A stretch of DNA of 64,000 nt from Candidatus Mycoplasma haematobovis (GTDB lineage Bacteria > Bacillota_I > Bacilli_A > Mycoplasmatales > Mycoplasmoidaceae): the NCBI RefSeq assembly GCF_001645765.1, contig NZ_LWUJ01000010.1:62001-126000 (forward strand), given 5' to 3'. The notes below the pieces were generated by a model. It was given only the letters and a program-made list of their open reading frames with translations, was not told where the DNA came from and searched no databases. The translations under genes were made by a program, and so were the position numbers. The stretch's first letter is position 1; each line of letters begins with the position of its first letter. Positions 573 to 60,440 of the stretch are shown in pieces.

Positions 573-1192
573 GTGGATATTAGAAAAGTAGCATTTGTAA
601 GTGCTGGTACCACAACTATTGTAGGCGCTGGTGCGGGGACATTTTTCTTGACACAAAACAAAACAAAACGACAATAAAGGATAGATTAATTTCAAAAAAA
701 ATAAATCTAATTAGTTCTGATGATGAATATCTACCAGCTTTCAAAGAATACAAAGATGAAGAAAGCTTCAAAAATTTAATTAAAGATGGGAGTAGTGAAA
801 CAAGTTCATGAAACGAACAACAATGAGCAGAAGCTTTGAAAAAATGATGCGACAAAAACCTAGTCCTTAAATCTGCTGAAAATCAAGAAAAAGTAGAAAA
901 ATATTGTATTAAGCCTCCTTTAACAATAAAGGAAAGAATAGAAAGACGTGGAAAAAGAAGAGCTGTAAATTGAGATAATGAAAAATTGGATAGAATGCTA
1001 CAATCAGATAATCAATTATCTTCAAATCTTTCTGAAGTAAATATAGTAAATTCCGTTAATTTATTTGGTAGTGATAAACAAGTAGCTAAAGATACGTTAA
1101 TAAAATGATGTGATAATAATATTGAAGTCGCATTAAATCAAGACAAAAGTAGTCAAATATGAAAAAAAGTGGAAAGACGTTGTTTAGAATAG
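573..1192 (+). pseudogene. Family N protein, out of frame at a CAAAA repeat (possible OFF state)
   Basis: GTG start VDIRKVAFVSAG, hydrophobic residues 4-25. The frame then meets (CAAAA)x3 at 654-669 and closes at TAA. The remaining about 165 codons are open in another frame and carry KKWCDK, KYCIK, IKWCDN and RRCLE, matching the neighbours at 2 and 1848. Losing one 5-bp unit, or gaining two, rejoins anchor and body. With no other lesion seen, a reversible OFF state is as likely as decay. An ATG start would only be out of frame. Confidence 0.72.
654..669 (+). repeat. (CAAAA)x3 tandem repeat at a frame junction
   Basis: Three copies of a 5-bp unit plus one C, just after the hydrophobic segment of the gene at 573. 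The reading frame is broken here. Two or five copies would join the two halves. Confidence 0.7.
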
Positions 1193-34481: not shown

Positions 34482-35077
34482 ATGGCATTGAAAAGAAAGA
34501 TGTTTATTACGAGCGGTACTTTTGTTGCTTCATTAGGTGGAATATTATTTGCTAATCTACCAACTTTGGACGATTGGACGATTGGACGATTCCTATTAAA
34601 GAACGATTAGTAAAGAAAGGTTTTAAGCCAGTCACTAATTGAAATAATAAAGAAGACAGCCTTGACACTGACCTTCCCAAAAAATATGGAATTTACAAAA
34701 CTACCAACTGAGGTAGAGAGTACAATATTTCTCAATGGTGCAAAGAAAATGAAAACCAAACTGGCAATAATCCTGAACTAACAAAAAAGGTTGAAGCATT
34801 ATGTTTTGAAACAATGGCTTCACAACTTAAAGGACAAGGAAAAAGAATACTTTTGGAACAAGAAAAAACAAGCTGAAAGAAAAACTGAGAAAAATTTAAA
34901 GCAAGAAGAGAAACTGCTAATTACGCTTATTGAAGTTTCTCATCAAATTTATTAAAGTCTGAAAATGCACCGGATGATTTCATAAGACGTTGCAGAGACA
35001 ATAGTCAAAAACCATATACTGATGAAAATAAAGGATTATTAAATGAAATAGAACTATTTTGCACAAATAGTCCTTAA
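34482..35077 (+). pseudogene. Family L protein switched OFF by an extra 8-bp repeat
   Basis: ATG start MALKRKMFITSGTF, hydrophobic residues 7-28. TTGGACGA x3 (34566-34589) follows; with three copies the frame ends at TAG, and with two it reads on as 'IPIKERLVKKGFKPVTNW' through about 160 codons with SQWCKE, ALCFET, RRCRDN and LFCTNS to TAA. I saw no other lesion, so a reversible switch is plausible. Confidence 0.76.
34566..34589 (+). repeat. TTGGACGA x3, frame closed
   Basis: Three perfect 8-bp units after the hydrophobic segment. Two copies give one open frame for the gene at 34482. Confidence 0.88.
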
Positions 35078-51972: not shown

Positions 51973-52549
51973 ATGGCATTTTCCGTTGCTAAAAAAGTAG
52001 TGGTAGTAACAACTAGCATTATCTATTCACACAGTTTTTGACAGTTAATAGCATTAAAGAAGAATTAATTAAGAAACATAACGTCCCTTTAGATTTAACT
52101 GCTACTTCTGAAAAAAATTATGAACATTTACAAGAGTTAGCAAAGCAATACTTAGTGGCAAACCGTCAGGGAAAGAAAGAATTGACTTTAAGCTCTGCAA
52201 CAGATACTAAACCCTTAAGAAAAAATGTTTGACTCTCTTAAATAGCAGTTCCAACCATAAAAATTTAACAAGCTCAGAAAACTGATGTACTGGAGAAAAT
52301 GTACCAAGAAAAATATCAACCCTTATGAATCAAAAAAAGGACGGTACAGTTTGAAATTTTCCATGAAAAAGATTTAAAGAAAAGCACAATAACAAAAATC
52401 CAATAAGGATTTGGAATATCAGAAATTGAGAGGCAATAAAGAATAATGATGAGGTACCTAATGAAAAAATAAATATACTAACAACTAGTTCAGGTTCAGT
52501 AATGTTAGGTAAAATAGAAAAATTCTGTACTAAAGCAAATAATGACTAG
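51973..52549 (+). pseudogene. Family K-like remnant with two frameshifts
   Basis: ATG start MAFSVAKKVVVVTTS. One frame change lies near 52035, before 'SIKEELIKKHNVPLDL', and a second near 52235, after 'LRKNVWLS'. The rest runs in a third frame with SENWCTG, 'WNFPWKRF' and KFCTKAN to TAG. The hydrophobic segment is short. Probably decayed. Its end overlaps the next start by 8 nt. Confidence 0.65.
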
Positions 52550-53011
52550 CACATTTGTAAAAATAGCTAGCTTAGGTGGAGGGATAGCAACTGTAACAGG
52601 GGGCACCATTGCAGTTGTTTATTCATTGTCTGATTCTTCAAAAACAAAACCCAGTACCCAAAGCAATGGCGATGAATCTTCAAAACAACAAAATACTAAA
52701 CAACCTCAATCAATTACTCAATTACTCAATTACTAACAAATAATAATTTGAAATTATTAAGCAAAAGCGAACCGAAAGATAATGATAAATGAAATACCAA
52801 TTGACAAAAATTTCAACAAGCTAACAATAGTGATACTGCTCCAAGTGTGCCTTGGAACTTTTCAGATTGAAAAACAACTAGAGTAAAGACTACGGCTCCC
52901 GAGGAATTCAAGACTGAATGTGAAAAACATGGAGCACAAACAGCAATTAATGAACAAAATTCAAGTTACATAGCAACAAGTACATATTGTTCAAAAGGAA
53001 TAGATGAATAA
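52542..53011 (+). pseudogene. Family K protein switched OFF by an extra 8-bp repeat
   Basis: ATG start MTSTFVKIASLGGG, hydrophobic residues 5-28, Ser/Lys/Gln linker. CAATTACT x3 (52711-52734) closes the frame at 52736. With two copies it reads SITQLLTNNNLKLLSKSE and on through 'WNTNWQKFQ', TECEKHG and TYCSKG to TAA, matching the K gene at 51405 (SIIDFLKDKQLEL). No other lesion was seen. Confidence 0.76.
52711..52734 (+). repeat. CAATTACT x3, frame closed
   Basis: Three perfect 8-bp units at the linker-to-body border of the gene at 52542. Two copies restore the family reading frame exactly. Confidence 0.88.
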
Positions 53012-57019: not shown

Positions 57020-57415
57020 TTGGCTTCCATAAAGATTGACAAAACTTTAAAAAACATGGTAGTAATAGGAGGAACAGTCTCAACTGTGGCTTTTGGCTTT
57101 TCAATGGTATCTTCCAAAGCTAGCATGAATAAATCAATTAGTCTAGGATATCCGACCAGCAAATGAACTCCAAATGTAACAAATATTGATAGTGTTGATA
57201 ACATTGAAGATCTTGAATTGCAAAAGGGGTGTAAATTCGTATTCTATAACAAAAGCGAAAAACAAACAGCATTCAGTGGTGGATTAGTAAAGGATGCCAG
57301 AAATTATTTAAATGGTGTTAGTGATGAATCAAAAAAACAAAAAATAATTGAAGAGGTTAGGAGAAATAAAGACAATTGTAACAAAGATGGATTTATTTAC
57401 ATTGAACTAGAATAG
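57020..57415 (+). CDS. Family I short protein, tandem copy 1
   Basis: 131 residues from TTG (ASIKIDKTLKNMVV); an internal ATG (residue 13) is an alternative. Hydrophobic residues 13-33, then 'ASMNKSISLGY', 'IEDLELQKGCKFVFYNK', 'KDARNYLNG' and 'NCNKDGFIYIELE'. Two Cys, about 50 residues apart. The stop overlaps the next GTG. First of five tandem copies. Confidence 0.86.
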
Positions 57416-57780
57416 TGACCTTAAAAGGGGCAAGAATTGTAAGAAATATGTTATTAATTGGGGGAACTACCTCCACTATATCTTTTGCTTGTTCTTTGGC
57501 TAAATCAAGGTCTAATTTACCACATTTAGATTATCAAGCATACGAAGTGGGCAAAAATATAAAGACTATAGGTAGCATTGATAATATTGAGGATTTTGAA
57601 GCAAACAAAGGGTGTAAATTTTTCTTCTATCCAAAAGGAACTGGTAGATTTGATCAAAAAGAAATAAAGGATGCTAGAGGATTTTCAAAAGGAACAAACG
57701 ATAGTGCAATAATAAGTAAAGCAGAGGAAAATAAAAGTAAATGCGCAAAAAATAGCTTTGTCTACATTGAAATACCGTAA
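57415..57780 (+). CDS. Family I short protein, tandem copy 2
   Basis: 121 residues from GTG in TAGTG. Hydrophobic residues 10-27 (LLIGGTTSTISFACSLA), 'IEDFEANKGCKFFFYPK', 'KDARGFSKG', 'KCAKNSFVYIEIP'. It uses neither TGG nor TGA for Trp, unusual in this window. Confidence 0.88.
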   Translation: MTLKGARIVRNMLLIGGTTSTISFACSLAKSRSNLPHLDYQAYEVGKNIKTIGSIDNIEDFEANKGCKFFFYPKGTGRFDQKEIKDARGFSKGTNDSAIISKAEENKSKCAKNSFVYIEIP

Positions 57781-58149
57781 TAACTTTAAAGGACGCCCAA
57801 ATTGTTAGAAATATGTTGTTGATCTGAGTGACAACAACTGCTTTTGGCTGTGCTTTGACTAAATCAAAAGATAATTTTAGTGCAATTAGACTATTCATTA
57901 AACAGCAGTAAACCTAAAGAAATAAAGGCCATCAGCAATATAAGATAATATTGAGAATTTTGAATTTCAAAAAAGTGCAAATTCCCATTCTACAAAAAGA
58001 AAGGAGGTAAATTTGACCCAGCAGAAATAAAAGGGGATAAAGAGTTTTCAGAATCAACAAAAACACAAGAGAGTGAAATAGTTAGCAAATTAAACACAAA
58101 TAAAGAAAAATGTGAAAAGAATAGATTTGTCTATATAGGAGTTTCCATA
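57779..58149 (+). pseudogene. Family I short protein, tandem copy 3, degraded
   Basis: No standard start: the place of ATG is ATA (ITLKDAQIVRNMLL). Stops and frame changes occur near 57908 and 57945. 'KKCKFPFYKKKGG' and 'KCEKNRFVYIGVS' remain. It has no terminal stop and its last frame runs straight into the ATG of copy 4. Confidence 0.75.
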
Positions 58150-58530
58150 ATGACTTTAAAGGGTAGCAGAACTGTAAAGAATATGGTAGTAATAGGAGGA
58201 ACAGTCTCAACTGTGGCTTTTGGCTTTTCAATGGTATCTTCCAAAGCTAGCATGTCTAAAATACACAATCTATCTTACTCAACAGATAAAGTAGGAAAAA
58301 ATATAACAACTATTAGCAATTTTGATCAAATTGAGGATTTTGAATTTGCCAATGGTTGCAAATTTCTATTCTACAAAAAAGGAGATAAAGATGCCTTCAA
58401 AAATGGGGAAGTTAAAGGGGCTAGAAGTTTTTCTTCAGGAGAAAATAATAATCAAGAAGAAATAATTAAGAAAGTGCAAGACAATAAACAGAATTGTACT
58501 AAAGATAGATTTATTTACAGCGAAATTTAA
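58150..58530 (+). CDS. Family I short protein, tandem copy 4
   Basis: 126 residues, ATG start MTLKGSRTVKNMVV. Hydrophobic residues 11-29 encoded with (GGCTTTT)x2, 'IEDFEFANGCKFLFYKKGDKD', 'KGARSFSSG', 'NCTKDRFIYSEI'. About 65 bases over the anchor are identical to copy 1. TAATG overlap with copy 5. Confidence 0.9.
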   Translation: MTLKGSRTVKNMVVIGGTVSTVAFGFSMVSSKASMSKIHNLSYSTDKVGKNITTISNFDQIEDFEFANGCKFLFYKKGDKDAFKNGEVKGARSFSSGENNNQEEIIKKVQDNKQNCTKDRFIYSEI

Positions 58531-58923
58531 TGACCCTTAAGGGTAGTAGAACCTCCAAAAACATGATTGTTATTGGAGGTACAGTATCTATTGTGGCTTT
58601 TGGCTTTTGGCTTTTCAATGGTATCTTCCAAAGCTAGCATGTCCAAAGTGGCTAGTTTAAGCTACCACAATGGTAATTGAACTCCAAATGTAACAAATAT
58701 TAGTAGTATTGACAATATTGAAGATCTAGAGCATTCAAAGGGATGTAAGTTTCTTTTCTACAAAAAGAACGAAAAAACTAATGCCTTTTCTCAGGGAAAA
58801 ATAAAGGATGCAAGAAGTTATTCAACAGAAAATAAAGATAAAGAAAATAACCAAATACAACAAGTAACAACTCACAAAGATAAATGCGAAAAGAATAGAT
58901 TCATTTATATTGAAATGGATTAA
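58530..58923 (+). pseudogene. Family I copy 5, switched OFF by an extra 7-bp repeat
   Basis: ATG start MTLKGSRTSKNMIV. Inside the hydrophobic segment GGCTTTT occurs three times (58595-58615) where copies 1 and 4 have two; the frame ends at TAG within a few codons. With two units it reads FGFSMVSSKASMSK and on to 'KGCKFLFYKKNEK', 'KCEKNRFIYIEMD' and TAA. No other lesion was seen, and the open sister copies show the ON state directly. Confidence 0.84.
58595..58615 (+). repeat. GGCTTTT x3, frame closed
   Basis: Three perfect 7-bp units. The open paralogues at 57088-57101 and 58214-58227 have two. Confidence 0.9.
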
Positions 58924-59155: not shown

Positions 59156-59518
59156 ATGTTTATTTGATTATCCAAGACATCACTTGGAGTGTTGGCTGGT
59201 GCGCTGTCAATAACTGGTTTATCATTAGTTCATTCTTTAAAGATACCTACAATAAAGGAAGAAATGCTTAATTCAAGAAGAGTGCCTTTTGAAGGAAACT
59301 GAAATATCAAATTTATCTCAATGAAAAAACGTCCATGATTTAATAATCTTGAACAAGCTCTAAAAAAAGAAAATCCTAATCTAAGTTATTCTGATATGGA
59401 AAAAAATGGTGGCAACTTACTAGAAAAATGATGTAAATCTTTCTGAAATGAAAAAATTTCCTTTAATAAAGAAGAAAAAACTCTAAGTAATGCAAAAAAG
59501 TGGTGCTCAACTACTTAG
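59156..59518 (+). CDS. Short one-module Cys protein
   Basis: 120 residues, ATG start MFIWLSKTSLGVLAG with TGA-Trp at residue 4. Hydrophobic residues 8-26, 'TIKEEMLNSRRVPFEGNW', then EKWCKSFW and KKWCST 24 residues apart. One module like family C, but with Trp before both Cys as in E. Its end overlaps the PC-subtype stop by 8 bases. Confidence 0.86.
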
Positions 59519-60440
59519 ATTTTGCTCTTTCTGTAATTCGTTGGATTTCTTGTAACACTTCTTGCAATCCCTTTAAAGTATTTTTTAATTCTTCTTGATT
59601 TACTGTTTCTTTTGTTTTACTTTGCATAGATTTTGCTTTCTCTAAATAAAGTTTTGCCCTTTTCTCTAAACTATTTAATTTCAATGCTCCTACTAGATCC
59701 TTTGTTCCAAGCCCTTTATTTGTACTATTCTCAGCCATTTTGTCAATTATTTCAACAGTTTCTTTAGGTTTAGCGCTGAAAGCATCCAATATATTTCCTA
59801 CATCATCACTACCTAATTCATCCAAAACTTTTGGTTGTTTCTGTATTAAATTACCAATTGAAGAGGCAAATTTACCAAAATCCTCTTGTCCCATAGCTTC
59901 AAATAATTTGGTAATTAATAAAGCATCTCCTCCCTTGGCATCAAAAATATTTTTCAATATTGAAAGCAAATTAATTGCTTGCTCGCCATGTTTAGCTATT
60001 CATTCTTTAATTTTCTTTCAATCAAATTCCTGAATTTTTGAATAATATTCTCGAAAAGCCTCTAATGCAGTTGAGCCCCATCCATTTAAAGTAGTAAACA
60101 TAGTCCTAGAACCATTTTGTAACTGATCTAATTTCAAATATTCCTTAGCTTTTTTACTTCATCCTTCTGTCTTATTTATTGCTGTTTTTGACCAATCAGA
60201 TAAAGTACCAAATAACTCTGTTATTCCTTTGCCAAGCTTACTAGTAACAGGTTTAATTATTACATTAGCTTTACTAACTATTTCTTGTAATTTCTTATTT
60301 AATTCAGTATTTTTCCCACTTACATTTGAAGCTAAACCAACTGAAGATACTCCTGCTACTCCCAAAAGAAATGCTGGCTTTAAAGTACTAGAAAAAAGAT
60401 AATTGGATAGGGGGGGGGTTGGAATTCTTATTGAAATCAT
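59511..60440 (-). CDS. PC-subtype protein (309 aa), C9 tract (open)
   Basis: ATG start MISIRIPTPPLSNY; the C tract codes Pro-Pro-Leu. Hydrophobic residues 21-42, 'DWKKIKEWIAKHGEQ', then 'LFEAMGQEDFGKF' and 'VLDELGSDDVGNIL', which align with 'MGxxDFxxxM' and 'AFxxMxxExxxxIL' of the long PC genes. The Gly5 turn and long charged coil are missing; it ends in a Lys/Glu helix. First of three subtype genes. Confidence 0.9.
60410..60418 (-). repeat. Poly-C tract, 9 C, frame open
   Basis: Nine C at codons 8-11 of the PC-subtype gene starting at 60440. Confidence 0.92.

What the first reader, a model, noticed from the sequence alone, without database searches (positions are those of the whole stretch)
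58595..58615. GGCTTTT x3 in one tandem copy versus x2 in its open sisters
The ON state (two units) is present in paralogues at 57088 and 58214, the OFF state here, with nearly identical flanks. It is the cleanest natural comparison in the window. The 7-bp repeat lies within the membrane segment.
Basis: seen in the sequence. Interest (0 to 1): 0.72.

Follow-up and report, generated by a model that had tools for sequence, protein, structure and literature searches.

The report
Slippage switch splitting a mycoplasma membrane-protein gene
In a cattle blood mycoplasma, one of several neighbouring copies of a small membrane-protein gene is switched out of frame by one extra 7-base repeat, and many related genes in the same genome carry similar frame-changing repeats just past their membrane anchor, as if the gene repertoire were built to be turned off and on by replication slippage.

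Summary
GGCTTTT x3 at 58595-58615 breaks the fourth readable copy (D) of a tandem gene array. Two sisters with two units (57088, 58215) are open, and D's downstream frame is intact to 58923.

The finding is one instance of a wider pattern. In intact short paralogue genes, perfect 8-9-nt direct repeats at frame-changing spacings (5, 7, 8, 10, 11) are 12-18 times over a synonymous-codon null within about 30 codons of the N-terminal membrane segment. In-frame spacings (6, 9, 12) show no clear excess there. Eight genes with a three-or-more-unit array, D included, are broken at the array. In M. haemofelis/M. haemocanis an 11-bp array at the same site has 1.7-1.8 units in open genes and 2.5-5.7 in broken ones, and three orthologue pairs differ in copy number with opposite states.

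Best reading: slipped-strand contingency loci with minimal two-unit arrays, D caught OFF. Reversible switching is not shown, and no second isolate was available. Gene conversion among sisters reaches the array edge and could have made the third unit.

The parts
58595..58615 (+). GGCTTTT x3 array in copy D (frame-breaking state)
   Evidence: sequence and TRF
58530..58637 (+). Copy D, upstream reading frame: start and membrane segment, 35 aa, stops just after the array
58615..58923 (+). Copy D, downstream frame, intact family domain of about 102 aa, out of frame with the start
   Evidence: no stop; dN 0.31 / dS 1.24 against copy A
58215..58228 (+). GGCTTTT x2 in copy C (open state)
58150..58530 (+). 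Copy C, intact paralogue, 126 aa
57088..57101 (+). GGCTTTT x2 in copy A (open state)
57020..57415 (+). Copy A, intact paralogue (TTG 57020 or ATG 57056 start)
57415..57780 (+). Copy B, intact paralogue without the heptamer pair
57781..58149 (+). Copy X, decayed paralogue (no standard start, several indels and stops): true pseudogene, contrast to D
   Evidence: alignment; sequence
52710..52734 (+). TCAATTAC x3.1, same kind of frame break in another paralogue gene (52542 to 53011)
34566..34591 (+). TTGGACGA x3.25, same kind of frame break right after the membrane segment (gene 34482 to 35077)
653..669 (+). ACAAA x3.4, same kind of frame break after the membrane segment; close paralogue at C1:57392 has one unit fewer and reads through this site

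Best explanation
Copy D is one gene of a tandem family of small membrane-anchored proteins, caught in the OFF state of a slipped-strand contingency locus. A 7-bp array at the end of the N-terminal membrane segment is open with two units (or any count equal to 2 modulo 3) and broken with three or four; polymerase slippage, or misaligned exchange with sister copies, adds or removes a unit. It belongs to a genome-wide design in this organism: many short paralogue genes carry a minimal two-unit (8-9-nt) frame-changing direct repeat just past the membrane anchor, so that single-unit slippage silences the exposed domain while keeping the gene otherwise intact. Shown: the array, the frame break, the intact downstream frame, the excess of such repeats and its position, and copy-number differences with opposite frame states between orthologues in sister species. 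Inferred: reversibility, rate, and a role in varying surface proteins.
For: Frame states. D carries a single lesion and its downstream frame shows purifying divergence like its sisters, unlike X. Eight frame-changing arrays of three or more units in paralogue genes are frame-broken at the array: GGCTTTT (D), TTGGACGA, TCAATTAC, ACAAA, CAAGA twice, the octamer at C1:163730, and AAGCCCTG on C12; CAAGA is broken at 3.6 units (C1:18593, 34379) and open at 2.6 in six paralogues. Direct repeats of >=8 nt at spacing 5/7/8/10/11 within TM-8..TM+30: 52 (32 independent contexts) against 2.9 in synonymous resampling on C1; 21 (19 contexts) against 1.7 in the C12 sample; spacing 6/9/12: 8 against 5.8 and 5 against 4.7; far domain 4 against 9.0 on C1. 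Whole-ORF synonymous resampling 85 observed against 18.9; robust to seed length 7-9 and to the TM call. Six other mollicute genomes give ratios of 0-1.4. M. haemofelis/M. haemocanis 11-bp array at the same site: five open genes all 1.7-1.8 units, six broken genes all 2.5-5.7; three orthologue pairs (78-80% identity) differ in units with opposite states.
Against: Only one assembly of the species is available and no reads, so no variation at D itself was seen. Two-to-three-unit arrays are expected to slip far less than classical long tracts. A conversion tract shared by A, C and D ends at the array, so the third unit may be an exchange product. About 20 paralogues on C1 have frame breaks and only 7 are at arrays, so ordinary decay also occurs. 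One of the array-broken genes (C1:34379) has a second break further on. Protein function and surface location are unproven. Far-domain frame-changing repeats on C12 are 9 against 5.5 expected, so the positional contrast is weaker there.
Confidence: 0.62

Rival explanations
1. One-off lesion: a chance 7-bp duplication by slippage at a pre-existing two-unit repeat inactivated one redundant copy, which is a young pseudogene on its way to the state of copy X.
For: Neighbour X is decayed; many paralogues carry frame breaks, most not at arrays; low copy number; no population data.
Against: It does not explain why intact genes carry a 12-18-fold excess of frame-changing but not in-frame repeats just past the anchor, nor orthologue pairs with opposite states in sister species.
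Confidence: 0.25
2. Unequal recombination or gene conversion between sister copies, with the crossover inside the repeat, made the third unit. The array is then a recombination junction rather than a slippage site. (Not exclusive of the best explanation.)
For: Identical runs of 72 nt (A/C), 45 (C/D) and 43 (A/D) in genes otherwise 67-69% identical, 0 of 20,000 shuffles as long; D's tract begins at the array edge.
Against: Other arrays of many different unit sequences (octamers, CAAGA, ACAAA) show the same state in genes without such a set of near neighbours sharing the unit. Exchange can also change unit number, so this does not exclude switching.
Confidence: 0.2
3. Rescue scars (for the genome-wide excess): frame-changing repeats in intact genes are second frameshifts that restored genes broken by a nearby earlier indel in a tolerant linker, fixed by selection for re-expression; no repeat is kept for its switchability.
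For: Accounts for frame-changing over in-frame spacing without second-order selection; the linker is variable among paralogues.
Against: Many repeats of 10-11-bp spacing match over only 8-9 nt and are not full duplications; several subfamilies keep the same motif on both sides of the array in one frame. It still implies repeated frame switching at this site.
Confidence: 0.15
4. Not silent: the three-unit form is translated from a TTG (58567) in the downstream frame, giving a different hydrophobic N-terminus, or by ribosomal frameshifting.
For: The downstream frame is open from TTG 58567 with a hydrophobic leader.
Against: The sisters share the conserved MTLK start in the other frame; no dedicated start signal or slippery element was identified in the sequence.
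Confidence: 0.05
5. Sequencing or assembly error in the repeat.
For: Draft Illumina/SPAdes assembly from blood DNA, about 48x (PMC4939789).
Against: A 21-bp array is far shorter than the reported reads, and the same pattern recurs at many loci and in two other genomes.
Confidence: 0.03

Closest known systems
Neisseria opa genes (CTCTT repeats in the signal-peptide coding region)
   Same: A family of paralogues, each with its own frame-changing repeat near the N-terminus, switched independently by slippage (own knowledge; papers listed, not read)
   Different: opa uses one pentamer in longer arrays (own knowledge); here unit sequence and length differ gene by gene (5, 7, 8, 10, 11 bp) and the open state has only about two units, in small mollicute proteins
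AG-repeat mod gene of Mycoplasma mycoides subsp. capri (PMC3498834)
   Same: Coding repeat in a mollicute gene whose unit number sets the reading frame; two states found in clones
   Different: Long dinucleotide tract in a restriction-modification gene, not a two-unit array behind a membrane anchor
VNTRs of M. haemofelis / M. haemocanis (PMC3196708, PMC3496576)
   Same: Same bacterial group; phase variation of paralogues was already proposed from tandem repeats
   Different: There the repeats were described as mostly intergenic and thought to act on promoters; here arrays are shown to lie inside split genes at one structural site, with frame states that follow unit number
Homopolymeric tracts at 5' ends of genes, e.g. 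Listeria inlA (PMC2831843)
   Same: Frame-changing, 5'-located, not explained by amino-acid placement
   Different: Homopolymers rather than short direct repeats
Heptanucleotide and octanucleotide repeats of Haemophilus influenzae (PMC2651432)
   Same: Units of 7 or 8 bp proposed to mediate phase variation, some inside ORFs
   Different: Mostly long arrays (12 or more units), several in promoters; that survey required at least three units

Membership tests
Simple-sequence contingency locus (ORF-frame phase variation by slippage) | Tandem repeat in the coding frame with unit length not a multiple of three | tested here: met
   7-bp unit inside the A/C/D frame
Simple-sequence contingency locus (ORF-frame phase variation by slippage) | Unit number determines open or broken frame, rest of gene intact | tested here: met
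   Two units open in A and C, three broken in D, downstream frame intact
Simple-sequence contingency locus (ORF-frame phase variation by slippage) | Unit number varies between isolates at the locus | not testable with these tools
   No second genome of the species; sister species have no close counterpart. Met for an 11-bp array of another family between orthologues of two sister species
Simple-sequence contingency locus (ORF-frame phase variation by slippage) | High-frequency reversible switching | not testable with these tools
   Needs reads or an experiment
Simple-sequence contingency locus (ORF-frame phase variation by slippage) | Repeat tract over-represented beyond chance | tested here: met
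Simple-sequence contingency locus (ORF-frame phase variation by slippage) | Gene product at the host interface | tested here: inconclusive
   One N-terminal hydrophobic segment and a small domain; no family hit
Decayed pseudogene | Several independent lesions and loss of constraint | tested here: not met
   D has one lesion and dN/dS about 0.25 against A; X meets it. A very young pseudogene is not excluded

The most novel reading that the evidence does not exclude
This mycoplasma keeps a genome-wide set of minimal two-unit frame-changing repeats (8-9-nt direct repeats 5-11 bp apart) just past the membrane anchor in roughly a third of the sampled short paralogue genes (52 of 162 on contig 1, 21 of 82 in the contig 12 sample). 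The sequence at that site is shaped by selection for switchability rather than for protein sequence. Standard repeat surveys, which ask for three or more units, would not see it.
Probability: 0.55. Interest if true: 0.78.

Novelty: new variant of a known kind. Interest (0 to 1): 0.64.

Why it matters
Hemoplasmas are uncultured, devote much of their genomes to short paralogues of unknown function, and cause persistent infection. Phase variation has been proposed for them (PMC3196708) but without a switch tied to gene structure. Here candidate switch sites are named, sit at one structural position and make simple predictions: unit number modulo three gives the frame. That makes the question testable from sequencing reads alone. 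The excess of frame-changing but not in-frame repeats, at DNA level and concentrated in the anchor-proximal linker, is an unusually clean sign of selection acting on mutability or on repeated frame switching.

Tried and rejected
Pfam, NCBIfam, PDB sequence and Foldseek searches gave no family for the protein (model of only moderate confidence). The genome-contig scan found no relatives; a profile search of relatives found weak family hits only in the two sister species. The idea that the excess comes from amino-acid composition was rejected by synonymous resampling. The idea that slippage simply makes more 7-8-bp duplications everywhere was disfavoured, because the far domain of the same genes shows no excess on contig 1 and in-frame spacings are not raised; intergenic DNA was too short to decide, though octamer spacing there is 4 against 0.6 expected, which leaves some room for a mutational bias. 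Inflation by shared ancestry was reduced by counting independent sequence contexts. A one-unit change as the cause of the frame break at C1:48413 was checked and rejected: the difference from its paralogue is a single base. IMG/VR was not scanned, as hemoplasma genes are not expected there.

Full report
Identity and code. The window is contig 1, 62001-126000, of a genome of 935,638 bases in 18 contigs. These numbers equal those published for 'Candidatus Mycoplasma haemobos' INIFAP01, an uncultured hemoplasma from cattle blood (PMC4939789). TGA is therefore read as tryptophan.

The locus. Between 57020 and 58923 lie five head-to-tail relatives: A (intact), B (intact), X (decayed), C (intact) and D. 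All begin with a short stretch and one hydrophobic segment, followed by a small domain with conserved cysteines. A and C carry GGCTTTT twice at the end of the hydrophobic segment; D carries it three times. In D the start frame ends after 35 residues and the family sequence continues in another frame without a stop to 58923. X has several independent indels and stops and no standard start codon, so it shows what real decay looks like here; D has one lesion. Pairwise dN/dS in the downstream part is 0.25 for A-D and 0.42 for A-C, so D was under protein-level constraint for most of its history. This cannot separate a switch from a very young pseudogene.

Gene conversion. A, C and D are 67-69% identical overall but share identical runs of 72 (A/C), 45 (C/D) and 43 nt (A/D), never reached in 20,000 column shuffles. 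In D the shared tract begins at the left edge of the array, so a misaligned exchange is a real alternative source of the third unit.

Not an isolated case. On contig 1 the other frame-changing arrays of at least three units and period 5, 7 or 8 that lie in short paralogue genes, with one exception (AACAA x3.0 at C1:45773, open), break the gene at the array: TTGGACGA x3.25 (window 34566), TCAATTAC x3.1 (52710), ACAAA x3.4 (653), CAAGA x3.6 (C1:18593 and 34379) and an octamer at C1:163730. AAGCCCTG x3 on contig 12 (L041) does the same, in a distant member of the family of the finding. For CAAGA the comparison is as clean as for GGCTTTT: six paralogues with 2.6 units are open and two with 3.6 units are broken. 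Arrays of period 6 or 9 lie in open frames and leave the frame unchanged.

The wider pattern. Intact ORFs were scanned for perfect direct repeats of at least 8 nt at each spacing. Spacings 5, 7, 8, 10 and 11 are in excess on contig 1 and in a contig 12 sample; 6, 9 and 12 are not. Resampling synonymous codons, which keeps every protein unchanged, gives 18.9 +/- 3.8 against 85 observed. By position, from 8 codons before to 30 after the end of the hydrophobic segment there are 52 repeats in 52 of 162 genes (32 independent contexts) against 2.9 expected, and 21 in 82 genes (19 contexts) against 1.7 on contig 12. In-frame spacings give 8 against 5.8 and 5 against 4.7. Beyond 80 codons the frame-changing class is below expectation on contig 1 (4 against 9.0) and mildly raised on contig 12 (9 against 5.5). 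The result does not depend on the segment call or on repeat length 7, 8 or 9. Six other mollicute genomes give ratios of 0-1.4; the sister species give 1.6-2 overall.

Comparative test. In G002 (1,147,259 bases; taken to be M. haemofelis, from own knowledge of the Langford 1 genome size) and G001 (919,992 bases, as published for M. haemocanis in PMC3496576), another paralogue family carries an 11-bp array at the same post-anchor site. Of eleven genes, the five with 1.7-1.8 units are open and the six with 2.5-5.7 units are broken, with about 255 residues of intact frame downstream. Three best-matching pairs between the species (78-80% identity) differ in unit number and have opposite states: L098 3.82 broken / L099 1.82 open; L101 2.82 broken / L100 1.82 open; L110 3.73 broken / L111 about two degenerate units open. 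Units differ in sequence from locus to locus but are identical within an array, as expected of arrays that turn over. The M. haemofelis genome paper saw such VNTRs but called them mostly intergenic and thought of promoters (PMC3196708); a split gene makes an internal array look intergenic (inference).

Mechanism. Slipped-strand mispairing on 8-9 nt of homology adds or removes one unit; because the units are 5, 7, 8, 10 or 11 bp, each step changes the frame. GGCTTTT has no stop in any frame, so counts of 2, 5, 8 are open and the others closed. Placement at or just after the anchor means the closed state yields only a short hydrophobic peptide. Shown: arrays, frames, excess, position, orthologue differences. 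Inferred: reversibility, rate, surface exposure and immune relevance. A weaker alternative for the genome-wide excess is that the repeats are scars of rescue from earlier frameshifts; this too implies repeated frame switching at the site.

Caution. One assembly, no reads, low copy numbers. About 20 broken paralogues on contig 1, of which 7 break at arrays, show that plain decay also happens. The census covers contig 1 and samples of contig 12, not the whole genome.

Noticed in passing
window 10970, 16584, 17902, 19976, 23987, 29411, 32671, 42296, 60410, 61880, 63380; also C1:53587: Runs of G8-10 on the + strand only (no run of C8 or more in 263 kb), read as poly-C at the 5' end of minus-strand genes (e.g. 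the 309-aa gene 59511-60440): likely a second class of phase-variable tract.
   Followed up: partly
C1:226703, 227178, 235218, 238137, 243680 (outside the window): Poly-G (9) that read on the + strand as glycine codons inside an N-terminal hydrophobic segment of further genes, the same anchor position as the short arrays.
   Followed up: partly
C12:41.6-43.9 kb (L039:1163-3352, minus strand): A second head-to-tail array of the same small-protein family, four intact copies beginning MTLKA, without the heptamer.
   Followed up: partly
C1:252-263 kb, minus strand (breaks near 252802, 258907, 260098, 262848): Several repeated genes resembling type I restriction specificity subunits share the same frame break; + strand breaks at 225957 and 237379 look similar. 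Identification is by eye only.
   Followed up: no
C1:251.4-251.9 kb: A gene that reads like histidyl-tRNA synthetase by eye is split into several frames near a G8 run.
   Followed up: no
C1:143280-143324, 206414 and 239468: An in-frame 9-bp x5 repeat (Ser-Asp-Ser) and TGT x10-12 runs.
   Followed up: no
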